54,260 nt of DNA from a virus. The notes beneath the pieces are model-generated. The model had not been told where the DNA came from. It was given only the letters and a program-made list of their open reading frames with translations, and searched no databases. Position 1 is the stretch's first letter; the number at the start of each line of letters is the position of its first letter. The translations under genes and the position numbers were made by a program. The stretch spans positions 1 through 54,260 of IMG/VR virus record IMGVR_UViG_3300036861_000225; one strand, written 5' to 3'. Positions 163 through 49,509 of this stretch are shown here, piece after piece.

Positions 163-330
163 CGCGCCGCCAGAAGCTGAGAGGTTGATTTCCGCTTCGA
201 TGTACCCGCCAGCGTCACCAGGGACCACGCCCAGCGCAGCGATGGTGGTGAGCGCGCGGATGCGCTTTATGGTGCGGCCATTGGCGAGGGTGATCTCGTC
301 ACCAGGGATGAATTCGTATTTCGTGTTCAT
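1..330 (-). CDS. Hexapeptide-repeat beta-helix protein, N-terminal part (continues at 54260)
   Basis: The start is ATG at 330-328 with AAGGA about 7 nt upstream. The product begins MNTKYEFIPGDEITLANG, has a unique region of about 52 residues, then enters tandem hexapeptides of the form x-V-S/F-G-D/G-A (QVSGDA, RVFGGA, WVSGDA). The reading frame runs off the left end of the window. After removal of the 56-nt terminal overlap it continues in frame at 54260 and stops at 53905, giving 209 aa in all (630 nt). Six-residue repeats of this kind are typical of left-handed beta-helices, so an elongated trimeric structural or binding protein is likely; its function is unknown. The gene belongs to the leftward operon starting near 1780, downstream of the DUF932 gene. 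Confidence 0.8.
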   Translation of the reverse strand, partial: MNTKYEFIPGDEITLANGRTIKRIRALTTIAALGVVPGDAGGYIEAEINLSASGGAWVSGDARVFGGAQVSGDARVFGGAQVSGDARVFGGAWVSGDARVFGGAQVSGDA

Positions 331-1474: not shown

Positions 1475-1576
1475 TCAGGGGCGCAGTGCGCGGGTAGTTG
1501 TCCAGTTGCGGGCGATACCGTACAGCCAAAGCGCGAGCTCGATGTTTACGGTGGCGAGGATGATCAGTGCGTCCAT
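1475..1576 (-). CDS. Small membrane protein, 33 aa
   Basis: ATG at 1576 is preceded by a strong AAGGAG 8 nt upstream. The product, beginning MDALIILATVNIELALWLYG, is mostly one hydrophobic segment followed by a short basic tail, so a single-pass inner-membrane microprotein is likely. It lies between the 63-aa gene and the DUF932 gene in the leftward early operon. Function unknown; the case for it being a gene rests on the ribosome binding site and the operon position. Confidence 0.6.
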   Translation of the reverse strand: MDALIILATVNIELALWLYGIARNWTTTRALRP

Positions 1577-1588
1577 GTCGTTTGCTCC

Positions 1589-1780
1589 TTAGGCTTGCGC
1601 GCCAGACAGGACGCTAACCAGCGTCAAAGGATCGTACGAAGCCACGATGCGGCCCTGCTCGTCATACAACACAACGAACGTGTCGCCGCTGTCGTAGTAC
1701 TTGGCGCCGTAGTCGACAGCATCGGCGAAGGACTCGCGGACCAGTTGCCCATGAGTGTCGATGTAGGTTACGCGGATCAT
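1589..1780 (-). CDS. Hypothetical protein, 63 aa; first gene of leftward early operon
   Basis: ATG at 1780 with AGGAG about 8 nt upstream. The product starts MIRVTYIDTHGQLVRESFAD and is a small soluble protein of alternating hydrophobic and charged residues, with no motif I recognise. Its position directly downstream of the promoter at 1832-1827 makes it the first leftward early product, a slot often used by phages for host-takeover proteins (inference). Confidence 0.7.
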   Translation of the reverse strand: MIRVTYIDTHGQLVRESFADAVDYGAKYYDSGDTFVVLYDEQGRIVASYDPLTLVSVLSGAQA

Positions 1781-1826
1781 GTCGTTTGCTCCTGTCTGCG
1801 TTTGAACGTGCTTAACTCTTGGATGA

Positions 1827-1855
1827 ACTATAGCAAGTGATACTTGTTAGTGCTC
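1827..1855 (-). promoter_or_regulatory. Predicted leftward early promoter with extended -10 and operator-like palindrome
   Basis: On the minus strand TGCTATAGT supplies an extended -10 (TATAGT at 1832-1827); the hexamer at 17 bp spacing (GAGCAC) is a poor -35. Immediately upstream of the -10 lies CAAGT-GAT-ACTTG (1834-1846, plus strand), an inverted repeat sharing AGCAAGTG with the palindromes in the rightward promoters. It would drive the genes from 1780 leftward. Confidence 0.5.
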
Positions 1856-1950
1856 ATTCACATGCGAGAATTTTCAGACAGAAAGGCTATGAAAGGTTGC
1901 AGCTTTATGCATCTGAAAACTTCTGATCTGACCCTTTTATCCAGGGGAAG

Positions 1951-1980
1951 TTGGCGTTCGCTCTCCCAAACTGCTACATT
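1951..1980 (+). promoter_or_regulatory. Predicted sigma-70-like promoter, near-leaderless
   Basis: TTGGCG (1951-1956), an 18-bp spacer, and TACATT (1975-1980) lie 7 nt before the ATG at 1988. A transcript would begin at or next to the start codon, and no Shine-Dalgarno sequence precedes it. It probably starts the rightward packaging operon. Unlike the other promoters of this type, its spacer has no clear palindrome. The rest of 1781-1987 shows no gene. Confidence 0.5.
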
Positions 1981-1987
1981 TCCCGCC

Positions 1988-2293
1988 ATGTCCACGAACC
2001 TAATCCGACTCGAAAGTGACGACCCGCACACTGCGGGCGTGCTCATTCGCTTCGATTCGGGCGCTGCAAAGACAGTCTCATGGCGCGCGGATCAGGTGAT
2101 CTCGCCCGCGCTCGACGCCGCGAAGGAGTACACCGCAGCAGTCATCGATGCCCTGGTGAAAGAGAACCGCGAGGCCGACGTGCGCAACACGAATTGGGTG
2201 AGCGTGACGGCCGCAATGCACAAGTGCATCCGCGATTTCAACGGCAAGCTGCACGCACTGGAGAACGAGCGTCATGCCGCGACTCTCCAATGA
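1988..2293 (+). CDS. Hypothetical protein, 101 aa, upstream of small terminase
   Basis: ATG at 1988 is chosen because the promoter -10 ends 7 nt before it, although the frame is open from 1844. The product begins MSTNLIRLESDDPHTAGVLI and looks like a small mixed alpha/beta soluble protein. It overlaps the small terminase gene by 20 nt, so the two are translated as a unit. No family recognised. Confidence 0.65.
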   Translation: MSTNLIRLESDDPHTAGVLIRFDSGAAKTVSWRADQVISPALDAAKEYTAAVIDALVKENREADVRNTNWVSVTAAMHKCIRDFNGKLHALENERHAATLQ

Positions 2294-2834
2294 GGCGCAC
2301 GAGACCTTCGCCCAGCACTTCGTGCAGTGGCGCCACTTCGGCAAGGCAGCCGAAGCGGCAGGCAGCACCGCGGAGAACCTGTCGAGCGCGGGGATCTCGC
2401 TGTACGAGCGCCCCGACGTTTACGCACGTGTCCAAGAGCTGACGGAGCAAAAGCTCAAGCCTTTGAAGATGGACAGCGCGCGGTTGATGACCGAGATCGG
2501 CCGTATGTCCACGGTCGACTATGCGAGTTTCTATCACCCGGATGGCAGTCAGAAGGCACCGCACGAGTTGACGCCAGCGCAGAGCGCGTGCGTGCGTGGC
2601 ACTGACCGCAGTGGCCGCTATCAGTTCTGGGACAAGATCGCGCCAGTCACGATCCTCGCGAAGCACTTCAAGATCATTGGCGAGGAAGGCGACGGCGTGA
2701 ACGCTCTCGCGTCCGCGCTCGCGAATCGTCTGGACAGCGCGCGGCGCCGCATCGAGCCGGGAGAGCCCGAGCCCGTGCGCGTGGTCGACTCGTCTGAGCC
2801 CGAACCACAACCCGAAGAGGAACAGCTGTGGTGA
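2274..2834 (+). CDS. terS: Small terminase subunit (DNA recognition)
   Basis: 186 aa. The N-terminus (MPRLSNEAHETFAQHFVQWR, then FGKAAEAAGST) is a helix-turn-helix of the terminase small-subunit type, followed by YERPDVYARVQEL and a central helical region; the C-terminus is acidic and proline-rich (EPEPQPEEEQ), a typical portal/large-subunit interaction tail. The small subunit binds viral DNA at the packaging site and regulates the large-subunit motor. It lies five genes upstream of the large subunit in the same operon. Confidence 0.8.
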   Translation: MPRLSNEAHETFAQHFVQWRHFGKAAEAAGSTAENLSSAGISLYERPDVYARVQELTEQKLKPLKMDSARLMTEIGRMSTVDYASFYHPDGSQKAPHELTPAQSACVRGTDRSGRYQFWDKIAPVTILAKHFKIIGEEGDGVNALASALANRLDSARRRIEPGEPEPVRVVDSSEPEPQPEEEQLW

Positions 2835-2983
2835 CCAAAGCGCAATTCGAGCGCTCGCGCTTCGATGTCGAGCCCTTGGGCTCGAAGGAAGGCGACAAGC
2901 GCGACACGGCCGCGGACAAGCGCCAGCTTGCCGCGATGAAGAAGGCAACCGGCCGCACGCCGCGGCGAAAGGCAAAGCGATGA
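2831..2983 (+). CDS. Small basic protein, 50 aa
   Basis: GTG at 2831 overlaps the stop of the small terminase gene (GTGA), a standard coupling arrangement; the stop at 2981-2983 overlaps the next ATG. The product begins MTKAQFERSRFDVEPLGSKE and ends in a Lys/Arg-rich tail (RTPRRKAKR), so nucleic-acid contact is possible. No family recognised. Confidence comes from the tight overlaps on both sides. Confidence 0.6.
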   Translation: MTKAQFERSRFDVEPLGSKEGDKRDTAADKRQLAAMKKATGRTPRRKAKR

Positions 2984-3255
2984 ACAACGCAGGCAACAGC
3001 ACGCACAAGGCGCGCGCCATCGATCCCAAGCAGTTCCGCAACCTCGCGACGGGCATCGGCCAATGCTCGGCCGAGAGCGAGCTCACGGGCGCGCGCCGCG
3101 CCCAGCGAGCCGCGGATTGCGCACCGGCCGCGCAGCGCGCGGTGCTCGACCCGAGCTACCCGAGCCCGGGCGAGCAGGCGAAGCGCTGGACCCCGGCGCC
3201 GGCGCAGGAGATCGCCACTCCGGTCGTGATCGTGCCGGCAAAGGGTCGCGGGTGA
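2980..3255 (+). CDS. Hypothetical protein, 91 aa
   Basis: ATG at 2980 overlaps the preceding stop (ATGA). The product begins MNNAGNSTHKARAIDPKQFR, is rich in Ala, Arg and Pro, and has no recognisable domain. It lies in the packaging operon between the 50-aa gene and the sigma-like gene. Confidence 0.6.
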   Translation: MNNAGNSTHKARAIDPKQFRNLATGIGQCSAESELTGARRAQRAADCAPAAQRAVLDPSYPSPGEQAKRWTPAPAQEIATPVVIVPAKGRG

Positions 3256-3259
3256 GCGT

Positions 3260-3778
3260 ATGACCGAAGCCGAAGCGCTCACCGCGATCGACAAGGCGGC
3301 CGAGCACGCAGCTTCGGCTTTCCGGCGCGCGGGAGGCTTCGCGCCCGTGCACTTGAGCTGGCAGGATCTGCGACAGGCCGCGCGCCTTGCCGCGATCATG
3401 GCTATGCAGCGCGCGGACACGAGCTACACCCCGAACGAGCGCGAAGCCTACCTTGCGCGCTGCGCGCTCGGCGGCATCCAGGATGCGTGCTGGCGCACGC
3501 GGGCCGCGGGCCGCGCGCTCAACGCAGCGGGGCCAGCAACTGAGCTGACCGAGCCGGCGCACTGGGACACGCCCGAGAGCTGGGCCATCGTGGCGCAAGC
3601 CTGCGAAGCAATCGCCGCGATGCCGCATCCATTCCCGCTGATCGTCCGGCTGACCCTGACCGGCGCCACGTCCAGCGAGATCGCGAAGGCGCTCAACCTG
3701 ACCACGGGCCGCATCGCGCAGCTGCGCGGCGAACTCGCGGGCAAGCTCAACAAGTACCTGAAAGGGATTCCGACATGA
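3260..3778 (+). CDS. Sigma-70 region-4-like HTH protein
   Basis: 172 aa. The C-terminal part (about residues 128-165) contains SSEIAKALNLTTGRIAQL, a helix-turn-helix like sigma factor region 4. The N-terminal half is helical and could be a degenerate sigma region 2, but I do not see a convincing core-binding motif. Proteins of this type occur next to phage terminases and are often annotated as sigma factor-like. It may direct late transcription or bind packaging DNA (inference). The gene overlaps the next by 4 nt. Confidence 0.6.
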   Translation: MTEAEALTAIDKAAEHAASAFRRAGGFAPVHLSWQDLRQAARLAAIMAMQRADTSYTPNEREAYLARCALGGIQDACWRTRAAGRALNAAGPATELTEPAHWDTPESWAIVAQACEAIAAMPHPFPLIVRLTLTGATSSEIAKALNLTTGRIAQLRGELAGKLNKYLKGIPT

Positions 3779-4194
3779 AGACCGCTGCCAGACTGGCGCT
3801 CTCGTGCATCCTCGCGCTGCTTGCGCTGAGCCTGCTGGTGCTGGGTCTTCAGGTGCGGGCCGCGCTCGCTGCCACGAACACCGACGCGCCGCCGCTGTGT
3901 CTGCCGGCGCCAATCGGTGCGGGCGGCGTGGCGCGCGTGGGCGTGTCGGCCAACGGGCAATGGATCTGGTGGGCGTGCCGACGAGCTGACAACTCGGTAC
4001 AGATGGTCCGCTACCTTGGCACGCGAGCCGTGACACTGCGCGCGGTCGGCGACAGGTTCGACACGATCTTGCGCAGCAGCGACCCGCTCGCCGCGGCACA
4101 GACCGCGCACCGGCGCTACGCCACTGTGTCGGCCACCGACCCCTCGCTCGCAGCTGTGTACGCCGACTACATCGCGAGCCTGAGCCTGCCCTGA
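3775..4194 (+). CDS. Membrane-anchored or secreted hypothetical protein, 139 aa
   Basis: ATG at 3775 overlaps the preceding stop (ATGA). Residues 1-30 form a positively charged then strongly hydrophobic stretch (CILALLALSLLVLGLQV), a signal peptide or membrane anchor, followed by a short soluble domain with WIWWAC. Export to the periplasm or inner-membrane anchoring is predicted. It lies directly upstream of terL and overlaps it (TGATG). No family recognised; superinfection exclusion is one possibility for such proteins but nothing here shows it. Confidence 0.65.
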   Translation: MKTAARLALSCILALLALSLLVLGLQVRAALAATNTDAPPLCLPAPIGAGGVARVGVSANGQWIWWACRRADNSVQMVRYLGTRAVTLRAVGDRFDTILRSSDPLAAAQTAHRRYATVSATDPSLAAVYADYIASLSLP

Positions 4195-5837
4195 TGGCCT
4201 ACGGTCCCCGCAAGGCAGCCAAGGCGAAAGCCTTTCCGGTGCTGCACGATCTGTCGGCCTACGCGAATCCTCCCCGCAAGCCCGGCACGAACCTGCGGCC
4301 GCTGCCCGAGTCCGCGCGCATCCCGGTGCGCATGGTCGACGCTGGTAACACGTTCGCGAAGCTGACACCGCTGGATGAGCTTTTTGACAAGCTCGCCAGC
4401 TACACGTACGACCCGCTCGGTTTCGTGCTGTGGGCGTTCCCGTGGGGCGAAGAGGGCACGTCGCTTGCCGACATGGTGGGCCCCGAGCCGTGGCAACGTG
4501 ACCAGCTCACGCGCATCGGCCAGCGGCTGCGCGAGGGCGGCGCCGACATCAGTGACGTCATCGAGGAAGACATCAGCAGCGGCCACGGCATCGGCAAGTC
4601 AGCCGAAGTCGCGTGGCTCATCCTCTGGGCGATCAGCACGCACGCCGACACCCGCGGCGTGGTAACCGCGAACACTGACACGCAGCTACGCACGAAGACG
4701 TGGGCCGAGTTGGGCAAGTGGTACCAGCTGTTCATCGGCAAGTCCATGTTCAAGTTCTCGGCCACGAGCATCACCATCGCGAACGACCCCGTGCGAGAGA
4801 AGTCGTGGCGGATCGATGCGATCCCCTGGAGCGCGGAGAACACCGAAGGCTTCGCCGGCTTGCACAACCAGGGCCGGCGCATCCTCGTGGTCTTCGACGA
4901 GGCAAGCTCGATCGATGACGCGATCTGGGAAGTGACCGAGGGCGCGCTCACCGACGCCAAGACGCAGATCATCTGGTGCCGATTCGGCAACCCCACCCGG
5001 ACCTCGGGGCAGTTCTTTCGGCGCTGCACGCAGCCCAAGCGCAACCACTACACCCGCGTGGACAGCCGCACCGTCAGCTTCACCAACAAGGGCCAGATCG
5101 CGGCGTGGGTGGACGACTACGGCGAGGACAGTGACTTCGTGCGCGTGCGCGTCAAGGGCCAGTTCCCCCGCGCCGGCTATGCGAACTTCATCAGCCCGGA
5201 ACAGGTCTTCAGCGCGCGCCGGCGCCGCGTGCCGCTCGTGACGTATCAGGCCTATCAGAAGGTGATCGCCGTGGACCCGGCGCGCTTCGGCGATGACTTC
5301 AGCGTCGTCACGTGCCGGCAAGGGCTCAAGGTGCATTGGCAAGTCGCGATTGGCGGGTTCGACGGCGTGGACCTTGCCGGCCGCGTGGCCGAGTTCGCGC
5401 GCAGCGAGACCGGGCGCATCAACTGCATCGTGTACGACGCGATCGGCAACGGCGCAGACTTCGACAGCGCGATCAAGCGCGTACCGAACCTGAACATCCC
5501 CTTGATCCCGGTCATGTGGGGCCAGCCCGCGAAGGACGACAAGCAGTACTTCAACCAGCGCAGCGAGTGTTGGGGGCGAATGCGCGACTGGCTCGACGAG
5601 GGCGAGATCCCGGACGAGGACACGCTCGCCGACGAGCTCGTGTCCCTGGACTACGGCTATGACGGCAAGTTCCGGATTCAACTTCAGAGCAAGAAGGACA
5701 TCAAGAAGAACGGCGGCAAGTCGCCCGACCGAGCCGATAGCCTCGCGCTCTCGTTCGTGCCAGACCTGATCGACCGCAGGGTCACGACAGCGCGCGCCCG
5801 GCCCGTCACCCGGCGCACCGTGGTCTGGAGCCGGTAG
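4194..5837 (+). CDS. terL: Terminase large subunit (packaging ATPase-nuclease)
   Basis: 547 aa. The N-terminal ATPase has Walker A SGHGIGKS (129-136) and Walker B ILVVFDEA (230-237, catalytic E after D). The C-terminal RNase H-like nuclease has AVDPARFGDD (D361), VYDAIGNG (D415) and PDRADSLALSF (D512/D515). The enzyme pumps DNA through the portal and cuts concatemers. Full length, with all catalytic motifs intact. The start overlaps the upstream stop. Confidence 0.95.
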   Translation: MAYGPRKAAKAKAFPVLHDLSAYANPPRKPGTNLRPLPESARIPVRMVDAGNTFAKLTPLDELFDKLASYTYDPLGFVLWAFPWGEEGTSLADMVGPEPWQRDQLTRIGQRLREGGADISDVIEEDISSGHGIGKSAEVAWLILWAISTHADTRGVVTANTDTQLRTKTWAELGKWYQLFIGKSMFKFSATSITIANDPVREKSWRIDAIPWSAENTEGFAGLHNQGRRILVVFDEASSIDDAIWEVTEGALTDAKTQIIWCRFGNPTRTSGQFFRRCTQPKRNHYTRVDSRTVSFTNKGQIAAWVDDYGEDSDFVRVRVKGQFPRAGYANFISPEQVFSARRRRVPLVTYQAYQKVIAVDPARFGDDFSVVTCRQGLKVHWQVAIGGFDGVDLAGRVAEFARSETGRINCIVYDAIGNGADFDSAIKRVPNLNIPLIPVMWGQPAKDDKQYFNQRSECWGRMRDWLDEGEIPDEDTLADELVSLDYGYDGKFRIQLQSKKDIKKNGGKSPDRADSLALSFVPDLIDRRVTTARARPVTRRTVVWSR

Positions 5838-5847
5838 CGGAGCGCAC

Positions 5848-6027
5848 ATGGACCTGCCCACGGCTCAACAGTGGTGGCGCGGGCTCTTCGATTCGCAGCG
5901 CGCGTTTGTGCTCGCGGTCCTGACCGGCGACCCGGCGCCCGCGCCCAAAGGCCCGTCCGACGCCTTCGTGTTCTACGCCTACCGGGCGCGCCACTGGCCG
6001 GCGCAAGAGGGCTGGCCGAAGAGGTGA
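5848..6027 (+). CDS. Hypothetical protein, 59 aa
   Basis: ATG at 5848 with GGAG 7 nt upstream. The product (MDLPTAQQWWRGLFDSQR at the N-terminus) is small and aromatic-rich. It sits between terL and the promoter that serves the portal gene. No family recognised. Confidence 0.6.
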   Translation: MDLPTAQQWWRGLFDSQRAFVLAVLTGDPAPAPKGPSDAFVFYAYRARHWPAQEGWPKR

Positions 6028-6039
6028 GGGCGGGCTTTC

Positions 6040-6068
6040 TTGTGCCTGAGCGAGTGCTCGCTTACACT
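6040..6068 (+). promoter_or_regulatory. Leaderless-type promoter with palindromic spacer, upstream of portal gene
   Basis: TTGTGC (6040-6045), a 17-bp spacer, and TACACT (6063-6068) lie 8 nt before the ATG at 6077. The spacer contains a perfect palindrome AGCGAG-TG-CTCGCT (6049-6062) abutting the -10. No Shine-Dalgarno sequence precedes the ATG. Confidence 0.6.
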
Positions 6069-6076
6069 CCCGCTTC

Positions 6077-8278
6077 ATGGCTAACCCGCTCGTCCGCCAG
6101 CTTGGGCTACAGGCAATCCTTCACCGCGACGCCGCGGCTGCGCCCGAGCCGCAGGCGATCGACGAGACAAGCAGCATGTCGGCGCTCGCGAGCCACGTGC
6201 GCGCGGCGTGGGGCCGGAACAAGCTCAGCAAGGAGCGCGTCAGCCTGAAGTTGCTCGACTGCCTGCGCGCGCGCCGCGGCGTCTACAGCCCGGCGCAGCT
6301 CCAGCAGATGATGAGCAACGGCGGGGGCATGAACATCGTTTGGGCCGACCTGACCGAGACCAAGTGCCGCGCCGCGTCGGCGTGGATTCGGGAGATCGTG
6401 CTGCCCGTGGGCGAACAGCCGTGGGGCATCGACCCGACTCCGCTGCCTGACCTGCCGATGCAGCTCAAGAAGTCCATCGTCACCAAGGCGCTGGAGCAGG
6501 CCAAGCAGACCATGATCCAGGCGGCGCAGGCCAGTGCCCCGCAGGAGCCGGACCCGAACGCGCCGCCCGGCGCCCCGCCGCCTCCGAGCCCAACCACGAT
6601 GACGCCGGGCGAGTTCCGTGATCTCGTGCTCCAGCTCGGCGAGAAGCTGCGCGACGAGGCCGAGCGCACCGTGAAGAAGATCGCGGCCACGCGCGCCAAG
6701 CGCATGGAAAAGCAGATCGCGGATCGGCTCGCGCAGGGCGGCTACGCGCAGGCGATGGATGCGTTCGTGGAGGACTTCTGCACCTACCCCGCAGCCATCC
6801 TCAAGGGGCCGATCTACACGCGCCACAAGGCGCTGAAGTGGGCGGACGGGTGGAACCCCGAGGTGTCGAACAACCCGGCGCAGACGTGGAGTCACGTCAG
6901 CCCGTTCGACGCCTATCCGGCCGCCGCGAGCCGCAGCCCACAGGAAGGCGACTTCATCGAGCGCATTCGCTTCCGCCGCGACGAACTGTTCGACCTCAAG
7001 GGCTTGCCCGACTACAAGGACGAGCAGATCGACGAGGCGCTGCGCGACTACTCGGGCGGCCACCTCGAGGGCTGGCTGTGGACCGAGGCCGAACGGCAGC
7101 GGCTGGAGCAGGAGACCATGTACATGTGGCTCTCCCCGCCGGGCGTGATCGACGCGCTCAACTACTGGGGCGGCGTGCCCGGCTGGAAGCTCAAGAGCTG
7201 GGGCGTGCAAGGCAACGCGAAGACGGGCGAGCTCGAAGACACCCGCGACTACGAGTGCAATGTGCTCATCTGCGGCAAGTACATCCTGTACGCGGCGCTG
7301 AACCCGGATCCGCTCGACCAGCGCCCGTACCGCAAGGCGTGCTACGACGAGATCCCCGGCGCCTTCTGGGGCCGCAGCATCCCCGATCTCGCGGGCACGC
7401 ACCAGAAAATGTGCAATGGCATCGCCTGCGCGCTGGCCGACAACCTCGCGATGGCGAGCGGGCCGATGGTGTGGGTGCACGCCGATCGCTTCGCCGATGG
7501 TGAGAGCACGATCGACATTTTCCCGTGGAAGACGTGGCAACTGAAGAGCGATCCGACGCAGGGCGCGAATCCCGGCATCGGCTTCTTCCAGGCGGACGAC
7601 CGCAGCGGCCCCCTGATGGCGACCTACGAGCAGTGGGAGCGCCGCGCGGACGACGCGACGGGCATCCCGCGCTACACCTACGGCAACGAGCAGGCCGGCG
7701 GCAGTGCCGACACGGCCACCGGCCTGAGCATGCTGATGAACAACGCAGCGAAAGGGCTGCGCCGCGCGATCTCGAACATCGACATCAACGTGATCGCGCC
7801 GACGATCGAGCAGACGTTCACCAACGAGATGCTCTACAACCCAGACGACTCGATCAAGGGCGACTGCATCACCGTGCCGCGCGGCGCCGCGGCGATCCTG
7901 ATCAAGGAATCGGCGCAGCAGCGGCGCACGCAGTTCCTCGGGATGACGGGCAACCCGATCGACATGCAGATCATCGGGCTCAAGGGCCGCGCGGCGTTGC
8001 TGCGCGAGACCGCAAGCGCGATGGAGCTGCCGGTCGACGAGATCGTGCCGTCCGAAGAGGAAATGGAAAAGAAGGAAGCCGAGCAGGCTCAGCAGGCTCA
8101 GCAAGCCCAGCAGGCCCAAGCGCAGGGCATGCAGGCGAACGAGCAGGCCATCGCGCAGCGCGAGTCGCAGGGCCGGCAAGAGGCGCTGATCGCCGACATC
8201 GTGAAGCAGGTGATCGCCGCGCAAGCGAAGCCGCAGCCGGCCGCTGCTGCGCCGCAGCGCCAACTCGCCGCTGCTTGA
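6077..8278 (+). CDS. Portal protein
   Basis: 733 aa, in the size range of podovirus portals. Order: N-terminal helical region, a Pro-rich linker near residues 155-175, a long central body, GNEQAGGSADTATGLSMLMN and AAKGLRRAISNIDINVIAP (the long portal helix region), and a Gln/Ala-rich coiled C-terminus (repeated AQQAQ, about residues 670-700). Portals form the dodecameric DNA channel at one capsid vertex. It follows terL and precedes scaffold and coat genes, the standard head order. The start at 6077 fits the promoter directly upstream; there is no ribosome binding site. Confidence 0.88.
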   Translation: MANPLVRQLGLQAILHRDAAAAPEPQAIDETSSMSALASHVRAAWGRNKLSKERVSLKLLDCLRARRGVYSPAQLQQMMSNGGGMNIVWADLTETKCRAASAWIREIVLPVGEQPWGIDPTPLPDLPMQLKKSIVTKALEQAKQTMIQAAQASAPQEPDPNAPPGAPPPPSPTTMTPGEFRDLVLQLGEKLRDEAERTVKKIAATRAKRMEKQIADRLAQGGYAQAMDAFVEDFCTYPAAILKGPIYTRHKALKWADGWNPEVSNNPAQTWSHVSPFDAYPAAASRSPQEGDFIERIRFRRDELFDLKGLPDYKDEQIDEALRDYSGGHLEGWLWTEAERQRLEQETMYMWLSPPGVIDALNYWGGVPGWKLKSWGVQGNAKTGELEDTRDYECNVLICGKYILYAALNPDPLDQRPYRKACYDEIPGAFWGRSIPDLAGTHQKMCNGIACALADNLAMASGPMVWVHADRFADGESTIDIFPWKTWQLKSDPTQGANPGIGFFQADDRSGPLMATYEQWERRADDATGIPRYTYGNEQAGGSADTATGLSMLMNNAAKGLRRAISNIDINVIAPTIEQTFTNEMLYNPDDSIKGDCITVPRGAAAILIKESAQQRRTQFLGMTGNPIDMQIIGLKGRAALLRETASAMELPVDEIVPSEEEMEKKEAEQAQQAQQAQQAQAQGMQANEQAIAQRESQGRQEALIADIVKQVIAAQAKPQPAAAAPQRQLAAA

Positions 8279-8304
8279 CGGTGAGCGTGCGCTCACGTTA
8301 CAGT
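8275..8304 (+). promoter_or_regulatory. Leaderless-type promoter with palindromic spacer, downstream of portal gene
   Basis: TTGACG (8275-8280), an 18-bp spacer, and TACAGT (8299-8304) lie 7 nt before the ATG at 8312. The spacer begins with a perfect 7-bp-arm palindrome GTGAGCG-TG-CGCTCAC (8281-8296). The -35 overlaps the portal stop codon. This is the best of the five promoters of this class. Confidence 0.65.
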
Positions 8305-8311
8305 CGCCCGC

Positions 8312-8584
8312 ATGCGGTTGAGTGAGCCCCAACTCCTGTTCTTGGCGCGATTCGCGAAGTCGCCCGAAGGGAAGGAATTCACCGATCTGCTGCGAGCCGA
8401 GCTCGCCGAAGTGGAGAAGGCATTGCGCACCCAGACCGGGGAAGAGCTGTACCGGCAACAAGGGCACGCGCAGCGGCTGGACAAGCTGATTGCCGACATC
8501 ACCGACGCGAGCGCCAAGCTCACCCGCAACCAGTCAGCGATGACGCCTCGACGGTTTGCGTTCACTGACGGACCCGCCCTGTAG
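8312..8584 (+). CDS. Hypothetical protein, 90 aa, between portal and scaffold
   Basis: ATG at 8312, 7 nt after the predicted -10, with no Shine-Dalgarno sequence. The product begins MRLSEPQLLFLARFAKSPEG and is largely alpha-helical (TDLLRAELAEVEKALR). Small proteins at this position in podoviruses are sometimes head-assembly accessories; I recognise no family. Confidence 0.7.
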   Translation: MRLSEPQLLFLARFAKSPEGKEFTDLLRAELAEVEKALRTQTGEELYRQQGHAQRLDKLIADITDASAKLTRNQSAMTPRRFAFTDGPAL

Positions 8585-8637
8585 GCATCCGCGAAAACCC
8601 GATTCCCAGACAAGAACCCTGGATCGCGGAGACCCAA

Positions 8638-9621
8638 ATGCAGGCTTCCCAAGCCCGAGATTCCAACGTGAACCTTCCTCGCGCCATCGTGCGCCGCTCC
8701 GCAGCCATCCAGGCCCGGATCGACGCCCAGCGCGAACCGAAGTCCGATCCCGCGGACCCGAATGCGCCCCCGGTCAACCCGAGCGCCGCGTCTGCGACCC
8801 CCGCTGACCCGCAGCCTACCCCGGCTCAACCTGTCGACCCCGCTCCTGCGGCATCCGACCCTCGCGAGAACGATCCCGCCTACTGGCGGCAACGTTTCAA
8901 CGTGACGGCCGGCGTGCTCAAGGCAGAGCGCACAGCGCGGCAGACCGAGACCGCAGGGCTGAATCAGCGGATGACCGAGTTGCAGGAGCAGATTCGTACT
9001 CTGCAAACCAGCGCAACGCCGAGCGAATCGAAGCTGGACGCGAAGCAATTCTTCACGCCCGAGCAGATCGAGCAGTTCGGCGAAGAGCAGTGCGAGGCCA
9101 TGGCGACAGCCGCGATGAAAAGCGCGCAAACCGCAGTGCAGCAAGCGATCGAGGCCGAAGTCAAGCCTCTGCGCGAGCAGCGCGAGCGGGAGAAGGCGCA
9201 GACCATCGAAGAACGGAAGCAAGTGTTCACTGACAAGCTCGGTGAACTGGTTCCGGACTACGCGGAGATCGACACGGACCCGGCATGGCTCGCGTGGCTT
9301 GCGCAGGAGGACGAAGCCTCGGGGCTCGAACGTCAGGGCATCCTGAACACGCACATTTCGTCGCTGAACGCGGCGAAGGTGGCGAAAATGTTCAGTGACT
9401 TCCTGAAGACGAAAGCCCCGCGGCCGGCGCCGCCGGTGGTAGGCAAAGGCAATGGCGCGGGGCCTTCGGGCGACGCGCCGCCAGAACCCCCCGCGTCGTC
9501 GCTCAAGGCTCCCACGGACGTCGAAGTCAAGGAGTACTTCAAGCGCGCCGCCCTCGGTCGGGTGAAGGATGCGGAACGTACGGAATTCGAGGCAAGGATG
9601 AAGCTGAGATCCGCGCGCTGA
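8638..9621 (+). CDS. Scaffolding protein (predicted)
   Basis: 327 aa from ATG 8638 with GGAG upstream. Composition is that of a phage scaffold: a disordered Pro/Ala-rich N-terminal segment (about 38-85), then long charged helices with coiled-coil character (QMTELQEQIRTLQ region and REQREREKAQTIEERKQ), and a short C-terminal helix. It lies immediately upstream of the coat gene. Scaffolds direct coat assembly and leave the procapsid. Assignment rests on composition and position rather than a sequence motif. Confidence 0.75.
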   Translation: MQASQARDSNVNLPRAIVRRSAAIQARIDAQREPKSDPADPNAPPVNPSAASATPADPQPTPAQPVDPAPAASDPRENDPAYWRQRFNVTAGVLKAERTARQTETAGLNQRMTELQEQIRTLQTSATPSESKLDAKQFFTPEQIEQFGEEQCEAMATAAMKSAQTAVQQAIEAEVKPLREQREREKAQTIEERKQVFTDKLGELVPDYAEIDTDPAWLAWLAQEDEASGLERQGILNTHISSLNAAKVAKMFSDFLKTKAPRPAPPVVGKGNGAGPSGDAPPEPPASSLKAPTDVEVKEYFKRAALGRVKDAERTEFEARMKLRSAR

Positions 9622-9659
9622 GCGCGGCCCCTGGCTCTACCCCCTTCAGGAGTTCCATC

Positions 9660-10697
9660 ATGCTCAAGAAGTTCACGCGCGCCATCGGCGCGTTCCTGGC
9701 CGGCGTCGCCCTCAAGGCGAACGACGCACTGTTCAGCTACATGGGCCGCACCGGCCTGATCGCCTTCGCGGGCGTGCCGCGCGCCTCGGGCGTGCCGGAC
9801 TACGGCCCGAGCGGTACGATCAACTTCGACCCGGAGATCTACTCGGGCAAGCTCGTCGAGAAGTTCTACAAGACGACCGTGTTCGGCGAGATCGCCTCGA
9901 CCGACTACGAGGGCGAGATCGCGGGCTTCGGCGCGCAGGTCAAGATCCGCACCATCCCGACCGTGGTCGTCAGCGACTACGTGATCGGCGCGGGCCTCAC
10001 CCCGCAGTACCCGGCGAACAACAGCGTCACGCTGGCGATCGACCAAGCCAAGAGCTTCGCCGTTGCGCTGTCGACCGTGGACAGCCGCCAGTCCGATCTG
10101 GATCTGGCCGACGTCTTCGCGAACGATGGCAGCATTCAGCTGCGCATCGCCGCGGATGCCGACCTGCTGGAGACCATCCCGGCCGACGTGAGCGCCGACA
10201 ACAGCGGTTCGACCGCCGGCGCCGACTCGAACGACATCAACCTCGGCACGGCCGCCGCTCCGCTCTCCGTGACGAAAGACACGGTGGTGCAGCTGATCAC
10301 GAACATGGGTCAGGTGCTCGACGAGCAGAACGTGTCGGACGAAGGTCGCTGGCTGGTGGTGCCGCCCTGGTTCATCAACCTGATCAAGAACTCGGACCTG
10401 AAGATCGCTTCGCTGGCCGGTGACGGGGTTTCGATCCTGCGCAACGGCAAGGTGGGCGAGATCGACCGGTTCACGATCTACCAAAGCCGCAACGTGCTCA
10501 CGCAGGCCACTCCCGGCCCGGCGTCACACATCGTCTTCGGCCACAGCGCCGGCCTGACGTTCGCGGCCCAGATCGTCGAGTGCCAGATGATCGACAACCC
10601 GTCGGACTTCGGCTACATCATCCGCGGCCTGATGGTCTTCGGTTTCGAGGTGATCGAGCCGAAGTACCTGGGCACGGCCATCGTCAAGCGCGGCTGA
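9660..10697 (+). CDS. Major capsid protein
   Basis: 345 aa from ATG 9660 with AGGAG. Position after scaffold, length, and features such as EIYSGKLVEKFYKTTVFGEI (N-arm/E-loop region), WLVVPPWFINLIKNSDLK and the closing PSDFGYIIRGLMVFGFEVIE identify a HK97-fold coat protein of the type common in podoviruses. No protease gene is adjacent, so maturation without a delta-domain cleavage is likely (inference). Confidence 0.88.
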   Translation: MLKKFTRAIGAFLAGVALKANDALFSYMGRTGLIAFAGVPRASGVPDYGPSGTINFDPEIYSGKLVEKFYKTTVFGEIASTDYEGEIAGFGAQVKIRTIPTVVVSDYVIGAGLTPQYPANNSVTLAIDQAKSFAVALSTVDSRQSDLDLADVFANDGSIQLRIAADADLLETIPADVSADNSGSTAGADSNDINLGTAAAPLSVTKDTVVQLITNMGQVLDEQNVSDEGRWLVVPPWFINLIKNSDLKIASLAGDGVSILRNGKVGEIDRFTIYQSRNVLTQATPGPASHIVFGHSAGLTFAAQIVECQMIDNPSDFGYIIRGLMVFGFEVIEPKYLGTAIVKRG

Positions 10698-10713
10698 TCG
10701 CAGTAGGATACGG

Positions 10714-10740
10714 CTTGCGCAAGTGAGCCCTTCCACTCAC
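10714..10740 (+). repeat. Paired palindromes between coat gene and next gene
   Basis: CTTGCGCAAG (10714-10723) is a perfect 10-bp palindrome, followed by GTGAG (10723-10727) pairing with CTCAC (10736-10740). The sequence GCAAGTGAG resembles the promoter-spacer operators elsewhere in the genome. It may be an mRNA hairpin or an additional regulator site. Confidence 0.35.
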
Positions 10741-10757
10741 CCCACGAAGGAGTTTTC

Positions 10758-10958
10758 ATGAAGACGAGCAACCCCTACGGCGCGAACTACCAAGTCAAGG
10801 TTCCGCCCGAGACCATCCAGGCCGAGCAATCGCAAGCCAAGGGCAAGGCGACCGCGCGCTACCCCCACAAGCCGCTGATGCCGGACCAGACCAACTCGAC
10901 CACTGGCAAGATGAAGGTTCGGGCCTACACCCCGGGCACTTCGCCCGCAGGTTCCTGA
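10758..10958 (+). CDS. Small protein following coat gene, 66 aa
   Basis: ATG at 10758 with a strong AAGGAG. The product begins MKTSNPYGANYQVKVPPETI, is polar and Lys/Pro-rich and probably extended. It is followed directly by a terminator, so it shares a transcript with the coat gene. A minor capsid or cement role fits the position, but no family is recognised. Confidence 0.7.
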   Translation: MKTSNPYGANYQVKVPPETIQAEQSQAKGKATARYPHKPLMPDQTNSTTGKMKVRAYTPGTSPAGS

Positions 10959-10970
10959 TCGAGCAGAAGA

Positions 10971-10992
10971 GAACCCCGCTTCGGCGGGGTTC
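10971..10992 (+). terminator. Rho-independent terminator after the capsid genes
   Basis: Nine-bp stem GAACCCCGC/GCGGGGTTC closed by a UUCG tetraloop, followed by TTCGTTG. The U-tract is short, so termination may be partial. It separates the highly expressed coat unit from the first HNH gene and its own promoter. Confidence 0.75.
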
Positions 10993-10999
10993 TTCGTTG

Positions 11000-11028
11000 T
11001 GGACGGTGAGCAAGTGCGCACATACAAT
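11000..11028 (+). promoter_or_regulatory. Leaderless-type promoter with palindromic spacer, upstream of HNH gene
   Basis: TGGACG (11000-11005), a 17-bp spacer, and TACAAT (11023-11028) lie 6 nt before the ATG at 11035. The spacer holds GTGAGCA-AG-TGCGCAC (11006-11021), a near-perfect copy of the palindrome at 8281-8296. The sequence ACGGTGAGC is shared exactly with the 8275 promoter. Confidence 0.6.
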
Positions 11029-11034
11029 CGTGCG

Positions 11035-11526
11035 ATGTTGACCGCTGAGCGTCTTCGCGAGCTGCTGACCTACGATCCCGAAACTGGGATCTTCACGTGG
11101 CGCTGCGATCGAGGCGGAAAAGCACGCAAAGGAACCCGCGCCGGATCGGTCAGTGACGACGGATACGCAAGGATCGGGGTTGACGGAAAGAGCTATCTTG
11201 CGCACCGACTCGCTTGGCTATACACCCACGGCAGCTGGCCGGCGGCCGAGATCGATCATCGCCTAGGCGCGAAAGCCGACAACAGAATCCATGAGCTGCG
11301 TGAAGCGACGCACGCGCAGAATCTGCAAAACCAGCGCCGCGCGCGTTCAGATAGTCGCAGCGGATTGCTGGGAGTTTCCCGACGTGGCAATCGGTGGCGG
11401 GCCACGATAAAGCACCAGGGCCGATACCGGCACCTCGGGAGCTTTGACGCGAAAGAAGCCGCTCACGAGTTCTATCTCCTCGCAAAAGAGATGGTTCACC
11501 CTTTCGGCGCAAGCCAAGGAGACTGA
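11035..11526 (+). CDS. HNH-AP2 homing endonuclease, copy 1
   Basis: 163 aa. N-terminal YDPETGIFTWR block, HNH region DGYARIGVDGKSYLAHRLAW through EIDHRLGAKADNR and LREATHAQN (about 44-100), then an AP2-type DNA-binding domain SGLLGVSRRGNRWRATI (about 110-150). Such genes are self-mobile and cut intron- or intergene-less alleles in related phages. It has its own promoter; the start at 11035 is chosen from the promoter position and alignment with the other copies. It is inserted between the coat unit and the head-tail genes. Confidence 0.88.
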   Translation: MLTAERLRELLTYDPETGIFTWRCDRGGKARKGTRAGSVSDDGYARIGVDGKSYLAHRLAWLYTHGSWPAAEIDHRLGAKADNRIHELREATHAQNLQNQRRARSDSRSGLLGVSRRGNRWRATIKHQGRYRHLGSFDAKEAAHEFYLLAKEMVHPFGASQGD

Positions 11527-11527
11527 A

Positions 11528-11935
11528 ATGATTTCGGAATCGATGGAGCAGATGGCGTCTGAAGCCCGCGGCAAGAACCGCCAAGACAAGCGCGTTCCGC
11601 TGCTGATCAACCGCGACAACCTGCGCCTGATGCCCAACACGCCGTTGATCCGCAAGCGACCCGCTTATATGCCCTACGACGGGAAGGCCACGGACGACGA
11701 GGCCACGCGCCGCCGCTACGTCGAAGGCACCGGCAGCCACCGGCCGCGTGTCGTCAACAGTCAGGCCGAAGCCGACGTGTTCGACATCGGCAAGGCCACG
11801 AAGGACGAACTCGTTGCGTTCGCCCTGTCCGAGTACGGCCGCATGCTCAATCCTGAGACCGACATCCGCACGCTGCGCAAGGAGTTCATGGCCTACGTGA
11901 ACACGCTGCCGGGCGGCGGTGAAACCCTGAGCTGA
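11528..11935 (+). CDS. Hypothetical structural protein, 135 aa
   Basis: ATG at 11528 with AAGGAG 6 nt upstream; the HNH gene ends just before. The product begins MISESMEQMASEARGKNRQD. The C-terminal part (KATKDELVAFALSEYGRML, then DIRTLRKEFMAYV) resembles small helical SAP/HeH-like modules often seen in phage head-completion proteins. Function unassigned; position suggests a capsid or connector accessory. Confidence 0.7.
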   Translation: MISESMEQMASEARGKNRQDKRVPLLINRDNLRLMPNTPLIRKRPAYMPYDGKATDDEATRRRYVEGTGSHRPRVVNSQAEADVFDIGKATKDELVAFALSEYGRMLNPETDIRTLRKEFMAYVNTLPGGGETLS

Positions 11936-11936
11936 C

Positions 11937-12584
11937 ATGACCATCCAGGCGGCCACGATCATCGACGAAGCGGCGACGCTCCTGCTCGACGCGCTGAACA
12001 ACCGCACGTGGCCGCTCCCCGAACTCTTGGGCTACTTCAACGAGGCGTTGCGCGCGACGGCCTTCGTGAAGCCCGACATGTACACCGTGCAGACGAGCTT
12101 CACGCCCGTCGCTGGAGTGCTCCAGAACCTGCCCAGTGACGGCATCGCGCTGCTCGACATCACTCGCAACCTCACCGGCCGCAACCGCGTCGTGACGCAG
12201 GTCGACGAGGGCCTGCTCGAAGAAGCGAACCGCTTCTGGCCGGCGGCGACCCAACAGGCCGAAGTCGAGCACTTCACCGCGGACCCGCGCAACCCGCGCC
12301 GGTTCCGGGTCTTCCCGCCGGCAAACGGCGCGGGCAGCATCGAGATCCTGTACGGCGCCGTGCCGCCGCAGGTCAACTACGACGACGAAGACCTGTCGGT
12401 GCCGGACAGCTTCCAGACGATCTTGCTCAACTTCGTGCTGAGCCGTGCGTATTCGAAGAACAGCAAGAAGCAGGATCTCGCGAAGTCCAGCTACTACATG
12501 CAGCAGTGGGCCGCGGCGCTCGGGCTCAAGTCCCAAGCGCAGGTTGCCGTCGCGCCGCACGTGGCGCAGAGCCCGGGGGTCTGA
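11937..12584 (+). CDS. Head-tail connector/adaptor protein (DUF6682-like)
   Basis: 215 aa. Begins MTIQAATIIDEAATLLLDAL, with WPLPELLGYFNEALRA near residues 24-40 and a C-terminal helical region with SYYMQQWAAALG. This pattern matches podovirus adaptor proteins, which attach below the portal and dock the tail. The gene is separated from its partner at 13120 by an inserted HNH gene. Confidence 0.75.
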   Translation: MTIQAATIIDEAATLLLDALNNRTWPLPELLGYFNEALRATAFVKPDMYTVQTSFTPVAGVLQNLPSDGIALLDITRNLTGRNRVVTQVDEGLLEEANRFWPAATQQAEVEHFTADPRNPRRFRVFPPANGAGSIEILYGAVPPQVNYDDEDLSVPDSFQTILLNFVLSRAYSKNSKKQDLAKSSYYMQQWAAALGLKSQAQVAVAPHVAQSPGV

Positions 12585-38135: not shown

Positions 38136-38425
38136 AACATTTCCGGGTCGCGTTCGCCGATGACTTTCAGCAGATGCGCGTTTTCGGTGCCAGTCACTCG
38201 GTAGAGTGTCAGCCCGCGGTATTGCCCATGCTGCAACACTTCAAACGTGGTGCCCTGGCTACAGCCGGCCATCAGCTCCAAGAACTTCGCATGGCCGATG
38301 AGCAGCCCCGTTGCGCGCAGCGGTTGAAGCCGCCGATCCGTGAAATCGCGCGGGTGAGGCGCGAGCGCACCGTAGCTTTCCAGCACCGCGCGCTGTTGCT
38401 CGATCTCAAGGTCGATGACGTTCAC
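38132..38425 (-). CDS. Hypothetical protein, 97 aa
   Basis: Begins MNVIDLEIEQQRAVLESYGA; contains LEIEQQRAVLESYG and a C-terminal YRGLTLYRVTGTENAHLLKV. No family recognised. Overlaps its neighbours by 4 nt on both sides within the long leftward operon. Confidence 0.65.
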   Translation of the reverse strand: MNVIDLEIEQQRAVLESYGALAPHPRDFTDRRLQPLRATGLLIGHAKFLELMAGCSQGTTFEVLQHGQYRGLTLYRVTGTENAHLLKVIGERDPEML

Positions 38426-38643
38426 GCCAAGTCCTCCAACACTTCACCATCCCATTCATACACGATCGCGTCAGGGCCATCGCCCATGCGCGCGCTCAAC
38501 GTCCCTTCACTCACGCCCGTCGGCCAGAGCGCGCCGAGAGCCGGAATCCCGTGGTCGCGTAGACACTTGAGAACGAAGATGCCGCGGTGCACGTCCTGGC
38601 CGAGATCCGCGAGCCGCGTCTTGCTGATGGTGACGGTGATCAT
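38422..38643 (-). CDS. Hypothetical protein, 73 aa
   Basis: Begins MITVTISKTRLADLGQDVHR; the C-terminus is acidic (YEWDGEVLEDLA). No family recognised. Coupled by ATGA overlaps to the MazZ-like gene upstream and the 97-aa gene downstream. Confidence 0.65.
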   Translation of the reverse strand: MITVTISKTRLADLGQDVHRGIFVLKCLRDHGIPALGALWPTGVSEGTLSARMGDGPDAIVYEWDGEVLEDLA

Positions 38644-39119
38644 TCGGGGACTGTAGCATTTGCTTCGCGCTCGCGCAACTCAAGTTCGAGTGCCGCGAGC
38701 AGGTTCCAGATCATTTGCGCACGGTGAAGGCAACCGGTCTGGGCGTCGACCCGTTCGCCTGTGCCGAACGAAAGCGCGTGTCGGCCGAAAGCATCCATGT
38801 ACCTCTCTTCGCCGTTCGGCACGGATGCCCACCCGTTAGGTGTGTACTTGGCCGCACCGACGGTCGTGACCTTGGCCACCTCGTCGATCGCGCGCGCGAA
38901 CCCGGCAATGCACAACCATACCCGGGTCTTTCCTGCGTCGAGTTTCGCGCCGGGCGTGTGCGCGTCGACTCCGTTAGGGTCGGCTTCGGCGAGCAGCGTG
39001 CGCGCCGGTCGGCAGGCCCGCTCATACCCATCTTTGTTCAGGCTCGGCGACCAGACAACCTCCACGTCGCCCACGACCGGGCACGGTTCGCCATCAGGCC
39101 AAGGAACCCAATCACTCAT
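38640..39119 (-). CDS. dATP/dGTP diphosphohydrolase-like protein (DUF5664/MazZ type)
   Basis: 159 aa. PGAKLDAGKTRVWLCIAGFA, VTTVGAAKYTPNGWASV, RYMDAFGRHALSFGTGERVD and TGCLHRAQMIWNLLAALEL form the DUF5664 domain (residues about 55-150), an all-alpha MazG-like fold. Members related to MazZ hydrolyse dATP/dGTP and supply nucleotides for 2-aminoadenine DNA. No PurZ gene is visible in this window, so a general dNTP-pool role is the safer reading. Confidence 0.75.
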   Translation of the reverse strand: MSDWVPWPDGEPCPVVGDVEVVWSPSLNKDGYERACRPARTLLAEADPNGVDAHTPGAKLDAGKTRVWLCIAGFARAIDEVAKVTTVGAAKYTPNGWASVPNGEERYMDAFGRHALSFGTGERVDAQTGCLHRAQMIWNLLAALELELREREANATVPE

Positions 39120-49479: not shown

Positions 49480-49509
49480 TTGCAGTATGCACGGAGCAAG
49501 TGCTACAGT
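49480..49509 (+). promoter_or_regulatory. Leaderless-type promoter with palindromic spacer, upstream of Cro-like gene
   Basis: TTGCAG (49480-49485), an 18-bp spacer, and TACAGT (49504-49509) lie 8 nt before the ATG at 49518. AGCA-AG-TGCT (49495-49504) abuts the -10. It is the same class as the promoters at 6040, 8275 and 11000, which suggests autoregulation by the gene it drives. Confidence 0.6.

What the first reader, a model, noticed from the sequence alone, without database searches (positions are those of the whole stretch)
6040..6076. A class of promoters with -10 boxes 6-8 nt from the start codon: predicted leaderless mRNAs
At 1951-1980, 6040-6068, 8275-8304, 11000-11028 and 49480-49509 a -35-like hexamer and a TACAnT/TACACT -10 box are separated by 17-18 bp, and the ATG follows 6-8 nt later. 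None of these starts has a Shine-Dalgarno sequence, whereas the other genes do. Transcription should begin at or next to the AUG, for portal, regulator, a homing endonuclease and two small proteins.
Basis: partly seen in the sequence, partly recalled or inferred. Interest (0 to 1): 0.75.

Follow-up and report, generated by a model that had tools for sequence, protein, structure and literature searches.

The report
Phage genes without mRNA leaders
Several genes of this uncultivated bacterial virus, including its portal gene and the first gene of its capsid operon, appear to be transcribed starting right at the start codon, so their messages lack the usual ribosome-binding leader, and this layout recurs in many related viruses.

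Summary
Observation confirmed; interpretation well supported by comparison, but no 5' end is measured. All five promoter/ATG pairs lie as stated; a sixth (ATG 38643, minus) was missed. TTGNNN-N16-19-TACANT-N6-8-ATG occurs 5 times against 0.05 expected. The window is an HMO-2011-like podophage. In 943 distinct gene starts from it and relatives, TANANT lies 6-8 nt before the start 36 times, against 1 at each of two control spacings and at most 6 for permuted letters. The 90-aa gene after the portal gene, before scaffold and capsid genes, has a -10 box 5-9 nt before ATG in 38 of 41 phages (29 of 32 dereplicated); portal genes in 36 of 81, the first packaging gene in 18 of 41, HNH genes in 7 of 15. 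Major capsid genes are SD-led in 16 of 16 called starts. Against: over half of portal homologues fail, and a strict promoter scan finds only two sites. Near relatives carry a dyad between -35 and -10, a possible operator. Leaderless phage genes are known; a clade-wide set at structural genes is the new part.

The parts
1951..1980 (+). Promoter 1: -35 TTGGCG (1951-1956), 18 bp, -10 TACATT (1975-1980, TGC before it); 7 nt to ATG 1988
   Evidence: 18 of 41 homologues with -10 at 5-9 nt
1988..2293 (+). 101-aa protein of unknown function, first of the rightward genes that lead to the terminase genes; predicted leaderless
6040..6068 (+). Promoter 2: TTGTGC (6040-6045), 17 bp, TACACT (6063-6068); 8 nt to ATG 6077
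   Evidence: 36 of 81 portal genes
6047..6062 (+). Dyad TGAGCGAGTGCTCGCT between -35 and -10, possible operator (inferred)
   Evidence: varied copies in L002, L004, L035
6077..8278 (+). Portal protein, 733 aa; predicted leaderless mRNA
8275..8304 (+). Promoter 3: TTGACG (8275-8280, contains the portal stop codon TGA 8276-8278), 18 bp, TACAGT (8299-8304); 7 nt to ATG 8312
   Evidence: conserved in 38 of 41
8281..8296 (+). Perfect dyad GTGAGCG-TG-CGCTCAC between -35 and -10, possible operator (inferred)
   Evidence: half-site in 11 of 26 spacers of this gene family, expected 4.0
8312..8584 (+). 90-aa protein of unknown function, followed by scaffold-like and major capsid genes; the most consistently leaderless-type gene of the clade
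10969..10994 (+). Hairpin followed by a short T-rich stretch just upstream of promoter 4, terminator-like by eye
   Evidence: 10960-11002 folds at -23.4 kcal/mol, z -3.96; not listed by the stricter terminator scan
11000..11028 (+). Promoter 4: TGGACG (11000-11005), 17 bp containing GTGAGCAAGTGCGCAC, TACAAT (11023-11028); 6 nt to ATG 11035
11035..11526 (+). HNH endonuclease (HNH_3, weak AP2 match), predicted leaderless
   Evidence: 7 of 15 HNH genes of the set with the same layout
38650..38678 (-).
   Evidence: TACGAT in the closest relative
38422..38643 (-). 73-aa protein of unknown function (phrog_31589), possibly leaderless
49480..49509 (+). Promoter 5: TTGCAG (49480-49485), 18 bp with AGCAAGTGCT, TACAGT (49504-49509); 8 nt to ATG 49518
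   Evidence: same layout in the closest relative L037
49518..49781 (+). 87-aa helix-turn-helix protein, likely regulator (PF01381 below its curated cut-off, phrog_35 E 2e-5), predicted leaderless

Best explanation
These are sigma-70-type promoters (TTGACA-like, 17-18 bp, TAcAnT or cATAAT) placed so that RNA polymerase starts at, or within about 3 nt of, the A of the ATG. The gene next to the promoter is then read from an mRNA without leader or Shine-Dalgarno site, presumably by ribosomes that bind the 5'-terminal AUG; genes further downstream, such as the major capsid gene, use SD sites. Shown: the sites, their conserved spacing in the clade, the missing SD. Inferred: the start point, host sigma-70 as the factor, AUG-first initiation. 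In near relatives a dyad between -35 and -10 may be the operator of a phage regulator, perhaps the HTH protein at 49518, that co-regulates these promoters (suggestive only).
For: Peak of TANANT at 6-8 nt from gene starts in two separately fetched sets; 36 of 943 starts, against 1 at 16-18 and 1 at 36-38 nt and 1-6 for the same letters permuted. Gene 8312 family 38 of 41, portal 36 of 81, 1988 family 18 of 41, window included; control windows of equal width reach at most 4 of 41, 7 of 81 and 7 of 41; dereplicated 29 of 32, 25 of 66, 17 of 36. A -35 with at least 4 of 6 matches at 16-18 bp in 44 of 80 against 7.4 expected. A of ATG as first purine 43 of 80 against 24.6; C at -1 in 63 of 80. Few or no SD-like motifs at these starts, while called major capsid starts have SD 16 of 16 and the 10758 gene 12 of 12. 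Two cultured pelagiphages of the wider group have TTGACA-N17-TATAAT-N7-ATG and TTGTCA-N17-TATAAT-N6-ATG at the terminase small subunit. That TA-like signals about 10-12 bp before the start codon mark leaderless genes is a published rule (PMC3160421, passages).
Against: No transcript 5' end is available. 45 of 81 portal genes and 23 of 41 homologues of 1988 fail the criterion, and two of the 36 portal positives (L108, L109) look like chance in coding DNA. Some portal genes have the -10 box further upstream with a leader. A strict promoter scan lists only sites 3 and 4 (2 against 0.9 in shuffles). Lack of SD alone says little: terminase large subunit starts lack it in 23 of 24 called cases without the -10 layout in 23. 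Distant phages differ: portal of HMO-2011 and RHph_TM3_14A, 8312 homologue of Salinicola. Seven starts of the second set have a -10-like box at 59 nt. Site 6 is weak in the nearest relative. HTVC115P has an SD-like GAGG as well. The operator enrichment is not significant for portal promoters.
Confidence: 0.82

Rival explanations
1. The promoters are real, but these genes are translated mainly from longer read-through transcripts (coupling to the upstream stop codon); the start-adjacent promoters serve mainly the downstream genes.
For: The 8312 ATG is only 33 nt after the portal stop, and genes of phage operons are often co-transcribed (general knowledge).
Against: The layout persists where 8312 homologues lie more than 300 nt after the portal stop (21 of 41 loci). 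SD-like motifs are rare at these starts. Hairpins of terminator type stand before the promoter at site 4 and at the portal of L002 and L004, though a strict count finds them in only 6 of 29 portal promoters.
Confidence: 0.1
2. Operator-first reading: the conserved elements are binding sites of a phage regulator, and the closeness to the ATG follows from compaction, with transcription starting elsewhere.
For: Dyads in the spacer at sites 2, 3 and 4; half-site in 11 of 26 spacers of the 8312 family, expected 4.0, maximum 10 in 500 shuffles.
Against: 15 of 26 spacers of the 8312 family and 17 of 25 of the portal family lack a half-site at 5 of 6, while -10 box and distance to ATG remain.
Confidence: 0.04
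3. Chance or an A/T-rich, unstructured start region that helps SD-less initiation on ordinary mRNAs.
For: A/T-rich, weakly folded start regions are common without SD (general knowledge).
Against: TAnAnT is enriched (36), not the same letters permuted (1-6), and at 6-8 nt only; the 6 nt before ATG are C-rich (40-63 of 80 C at each position), not A/T-rich; -35 boxes co-occur at 16-18 bp.
Confidence: 0.02
4. A phage-encoded sigma factor recognises this promoter class.
For: 42183-42503 (minus) matches LuxR / sigma region 4 HTH profiles; 3260-3778 has a very weak sigma region 4 match (E 0.048).
Against: The hexamers resemble those of sigma-70. No homologue of either protein was found by phmmer (E 1e-3) in the 83 relative loci searched, but these are partial contigs, so absence is weak evidence.
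Confidence: 0.04

Closest known systems
Leaderless phage repressor genes: lambda cI, telomere phage PY54 cI and cro
   Same: Promoter next to the start codon; mRNA begins at AUG (PY54 by RACE: PMC4488713, passages; lambda cI: PMC9031893 and PMC3160421, passages).
   Different: There, lysis/lysogeny regulators; here, structural and packaging genes and HNH endonuclease genes across a clade. Here start points are predicted, not measured. A paper on phage AR9 says in passing that phage transcripts are 'often leaderless' (PMC5312081, passage), so the general idea is not new.
TA-led (leaderless) genes of bacteria; '-10 region adjacent to ORF' in Deinococcus-Thermus
   Same: TAnnnT about 10-12 bp before the start codon, no SD (PMC3160421; PMC12340547, passages).
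   Different: Those are cellular genes. Here it marks a few genes per phage, often with a -35 at 16-18 bp (44 of 80). In that survey 9 of 71 beta-proteobacterial genomes had such genes.
HMO-2011-type podophages (HMO-2011, CRP and HTVC phages)
   Same: Homologous portal protein, similar genome size, family A DNA polymerase in the window.
   Different: 22-31% portal identity in the 20 rows shown of 36; portal of HMO-2011 and RHph_TM3_14A lacks the layout. HTVC115P and HTVC103P show it at the terminase small subunit, HTVC033P does not.

Membership tests
Leaderless (TA-led) gene | -10 box about 6-9 nt before the start codon | tested here: met
Leaderless (TA-led) gene | No Shine-Dalgarno sequence | tested here: met
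   SD-like 4-mer in 0 of 6 window starts, 1 of 25 and 0 of 22 in the two sets
Leaderless (TA-led) gene | AUG rather than GUG or UUG start codon | tested here: met
   25 of 25 in the first set, 21 of 22 in the second; all six in the window. The family counts allowed ATG only.
Leaderless (TA-led) gene | Mapped primary 5' end at the start codon | not testable with these tools
   No transcript data for this virus
Sigma-70 promoter | TTGACA-like and TATAAT-like hexamers 16-18 bp apart | tested here: met
   44 of 80 with at least 4 of 6 in the -35 against 7.4 expected. In the window sites 1, 3 and 4 reach 4 or 5 of 6, sites 2, 5 and 6 reach 3; a 9-of-12 scan of 1500-12000 lists sites 3 and 4 only
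Sigma-70 promoter | Transcription by host holoenzyme | not testable with these tools
   No RNA polymerase subunit among the 40 window proteins scanned with PHROGs; two sigma region 4-like proteins
HMO-2011-type phage group | Homologous portal protein | tested here: met
   Hits to HMO-2011, CRP and HTVC phages, E 4e-75 to 1e-32 in the 20 rows shown
HMO-2011-type phage group | Full set of core genes | not tested
   Core list not compared; the terminase large subunit hits listed first are Pseudomonas, Klebsiella and epsilon15-type phages
Regulon with shared operator | Common operator in the promoters beyond chance | tested here: inconclusive
   11 of 26 against 4.0 for the 8312 family; 8 of 25 against 4.0, maximum 9 in shuffles, for portal

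The most novel reading that the evidence does not exclude
Leaderlessness is a working part of this clade's late-gene programme: a shared, operator-controlled set of leaderless promoters makes portal, capsid-operon and endonuclease expression depend on AUG-first 70S initiation, so that these genes are favoured when infection changes initiation-factor balance, and mobile HNH genes spread by using or capturing such promoters (as in L003).
Probability: 0.15. Interest if true: 0.8.

Novelty: new variant of a known kind. Interest (0 to 1): 0.55.

Why it matters
The measured leaderless phage mRNAs that I saw described here are repressor genes. A conserved set at structural genes would mean that gene callers which score SD sites misjudge such starts, gives a large natural alignment for asking how leaderless initiation is kept in evolution, and makes a single-base prediction for 5' end mapping. 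Cultured pelagiphages HTVC115P and HTVC103P carry near-consensus cases, so a first test does not need this uncultivated virus.

Tried and rejected
Phage DNA similarity (blastn, 5.8 kb around the sites): no match. The regulator found one relative only, on the contig of the close relative L002; a weaker one (45%) lies in L010. The alignment of the 8312 family was too diverged for a collection scan, so the portal alignment was used. Rfam: nothing in the window; at the leadered portal genes no match at the portal leader (8 loci). A phage sigma factor as cause was considered and set aside. A terminator before every portal promoter was tested with a strict detector: 6 of 29, against 1 in a single shuffle, so it is not general; the window's own site 2 fails it. 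A universal operator was tested and is not general. The overlap of the portal stop codon with the -35 TTGA of the next promoter holds in 9 of 9 loci at 33-36 nt, several of them close relatives; it is compact layout, not a mechanism. Papers: 20 of 35 hits listed; 25 of 108; 6 of 6; 4 of 4; 20 of 79; 2 of 2. Among the listed titles and abstracts none is about leaderless portal or capsid-operon genes or promoters of HMO-2011-type phages; of the papers opened only passages were seen; subscription papers are not covered.

Rows dropped: L009, L011 and L024 (near duplicates) and L037-L043 were left out of the first set (33 sources); of the 80 loci kept (162 were found) 13 were already held and 16 repeat earlier contigs, leaving 51. 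Starts were merged only if their last 40 nt were identical, so close relatives remain; the dereplicated counts should be preferred. Portal rows L108 and L109, positive, were dropped.

Full report
What the window is. The window is an IMG/VR virus record of 54,260 bases. It has a large terminase (4194-5837), portal (6077-8278), a gene in scaffold position (8638-9621), major capsid gene (9660-10697), family A DNA polymerase (42769-44943, minus) and a VapE/primase-type protein (50767-53097). The portal protein resembles those of Rhizobium phage RHph_TM3_14A, Roseobacter CRP, Pelagibacter HTVC phages and HMO-2011 (22-31% identity in the 20 rows shown of 36). Closer relatives came from viral contigs, 35 loci and 80 kept of 162, and six from bacterial assemblies, among them Rubrivivax, Burkholderiales and Salinicola. 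The host is not known.

Check of the observation. TACANT-N6-8-ATG occurs six times in both strands against 0.65 expected; with TTGNNN at 16-19 bp five times against 0.05. The sixth case is TTGCGC-N17-TACAGT-N6-ATG38643 on the minus strand. None of the six starts has an SD-like 4-mer; of the 70 other starts 38 have one, random 17-nt stretches 10%. So these starts lack SD, but many other starts do too. A strict consensus scan of 1500-12000 lists sites 3 and 4 only, 2 against 0.9 (sd 0.9) in shuffles: the hexamers alone would not convince.

Position test. I called genes with a coding score that does not look upstream (33 sources, 518 genes). Among 492 distinct starts TANANT lay 6, 7 or 8 nt before the start 4, 10 and 10 times, once each at 9, 10 and 12, never at 13-27, and at most 3 times at any spacing from 28 to 59. 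In 51 loci fetched afterwards (451 starts) TANANT gave 3, 4 and 5 at 6-8 nt, three cases in all at 13-27 nt, and at most 3 at any spacing from 28 to 59; the pattern (T/C)ATAAT or TA(C/T)ANT gave 2, 4 and 12 at 6-8 nt, and also 7 at 59 nt, which I did not pursue. Over all 943 starts TAnAnT is found 36 times at 6-8 nt, once at 16-18 and once at 36-38; the same letters permuted give 1-6 at 6-8 nt, the reverse complement 0; the looser TANNNT gives 49 against 5-12 at control spacings. This speaks against simple A/T richness.

Family test. Homologues were found with profiles that do not depend on the start codon, and any in-frame ATG near the beginning was allowed, for test and control windows alike (window included in all counts). 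A -10 box (at least 4 of 6, A2 and T6) ended 5-9 nt before an ATG in 38 of 41 homologues of the 90-aa gene 8312, 36 of 81 portal genes and 18 of 41 homologues of 1988. Control windows of equal width reached at most 4 of 41, 7 of 81 and 7 of 41. The three misses of the 8312 family have the box 10 nt away. Counting only upstream regions less than 80% identical: 29 of 32, 25 of 66, 17 of 36. Among five genome-assembly loci with an 8312 homologue, L115 (Burkholderiales) and L111 meet the criterion; L113 and L114 show weaker variants and Salinicola has an SD-like AGGAG. HNH genes have the layout in 7 of 15 distinct cases, none of the seven with an SD-like motif. Controls with called starts: major capsid SD 16 of 16, layout 1; scaffold position SD 13 of 18, layout 0; 10758 SD 12 of 12, layout 0; terminase large subunit SD 1 of 24, layout 1. 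The last shows that lack of SD alone is not a sign of leaderlessness.

Start-point evidence. In 80 dereplicated promoters (spacing 5-11 nt) a -35 with at least 4 of 6 matches at 16-18 bp is present in 44 against 7.4 expected from shuffled upstream DNA. The base before ATG is C in 63 of 80. Searching from 6 nt after the -10 box, the first purine is the A of ATG in 43 of 80, against 24.6 on average and 36 at most in 1000 shuffles of the same letters. Since RNA polymerase prefers a purine after a pyrimidine (recalled), initiation at the A is favoured.

Mechanism. The best reading is a set of sigma-70-type promoters placed so that mRNA begins at the AUG. The 8312 promoter stands before the capsid genes, the 1988 promoter before the packaging genes; the genes further down rely on SD sites or coupling. 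In 9 of 9 loci where 8312 follows the portal at 33-36 nt the portal stop TGA is part of the -35 TTGA, so one promoter length separates the two genes; in 21 of 41 loci the two genes are more than 300 nt apart and the layout is still there. At site 4, and at the portal of L002 and L004, a hairpin of terminator type stands directly before the promoter; the terminator scan did not list the one at site 4, and a stricter count finds it in only 6 of 29 portal promoters.

Operator. Sites 2, 3 and 4 hold a dyad of GTGAGC and GCTCAC type between -35 and -10, and site 5, before the HTH gene, holds AGCAAGTGCT. The half-site is enriched in 8312 spacers (11 of 26, expected 4.0, maximum 10 of 500 shuffles) but not significantly in portal spacers (8 of 25, expected 4.0, maximum 9). 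A regulator acting on these promoters is plausible in the near relatives, not shown.

Results against. 45 of 81 portal genes and 23 of 41 homologues of 1988 do not meet the criterion. In one portal subgroup (L006, L010, L012, L016, L019, L021) a CATAAT box lies further upstream and is followed by a leader with a short open frame. The portal of HMO-2011 has an SD-like AAGGAA and that of RHph_TM3_14A no adjacent -10 box. In six annotated phage records 8 of 66 starts meet the criterion, four of them in the most A/T-rich genome. Two cases deserve a test: terminase small subunit of HTVC115P (TTGACA-N17-TATAAT-N7-ATG, with an SD-like GAGG also present) and of HTVC103P (TTGTCA-N17-TATAAT-N6-ATG); HTVC033P lacks it, HTVC104P was not read. 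Site 6 is TACGAT in the closest relative.

Known context. TA-like signals about 10-12 bp before start codons were proposed to mark leaderless genes, found in 9 of 71 beta-proteobacterial genomes (PMC3160421, passages). Deinococcus uses such -10 regions widely (PMC12340547, passages). PY54 cI and cro mRNAs begin at AUG by RACE (PMC4488713, passages). S. meliloti has 171 leaderless starts (PMC3616915, passages). In L. cremoris leaders are either under 5 nt or about 40 nt (PMC10986495, passages). The AR9 paper calls phage transcripts 'often leaderless' in passing (PMC5312081, passage). The HMO-2011-type genome paper does not contain the words promoter or leaderless in its main text (PMC9038755, term search). 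Six full-text searches (capped lists) showed nothing on leaderless portal or capsid-operon genes.

Verdict. The kind of system is known; its conserved use at structural genes and HNH genes in one phage clade is new as far as these searches show.

Noticed in passing
L006, L010, L012, L016, L019, L021 upstream of portal (200 nt read); similar leader ends in L048, L056, L062, L075, L077 (50 nt read): Leadered portal variant: CATAAT further upstream, then GCAACCGGC..GCCATGC or similar, a short open frame, and often CACC..GGTGATCCACGCATG; in L021 the short frame's stop overlaps the portal ATG. No Rfam match at that place in the loci scanned (L010 was left out). Possible leader peptide or RNA element.
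   Followed up: partly
L003:3757-4246: An HNH gene sits between the portal promoter and the portal gene and begins with codons for MANPL like the portal itself, so it seems to have captured the leaderless promoter; the portal gene of L003 has no -10 box next to its ATG.
   Followed up: partly
window 8275-8280: The -35 box of promoter 3 contains the portal stop codon; the same in 9 of 9 loci with 33-36 nt between the two genes.
   Followed up: partly
second set of loci, 59 nt before the start: Seven starts have a (T/C)ATAAT or TA(C/T)ANT box at exactly 59 nt, perhaps one family of close relatives.
   Followed up: no
window 1-180 and 54110-54260: An array of 18-nt repeats at both ends; the protein 53908-54255 (minus) matches the YdcK beta-solenoid repeat. 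The record may be circularly permuted or circular.
   Followed up: no
window 3260-3778 and 42183-42503 (minus): Two small proteins with sigma region 4 / LuxR-type HTH matches (E 0.048 and about 2e-8); candidate regulators, no homologue in the 83 loci searched.
   Followed up: partly
window 38643-39119 (minus): Protein of the family annotated 'endolysin; inhibits RNA polymerase' (phrog_5033, E 1e-38), within the leftward gene block, away from the other endolysin at 31131-31658.
   Followed up: no
window 49792-50163: Lar-like restriction alleviation protein right after the HTH gene (PF14354, E 5e-7).
   Followed up: no
L114, L115, L116: Portal relatives on long contigs of bacterial assemblies (Rubrivivax, Burkholderiales, and the isolate Salinicola peritrichatus JCM 18795), hinting at hosts and perhaps at integrated relatives.
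   Followed up: no
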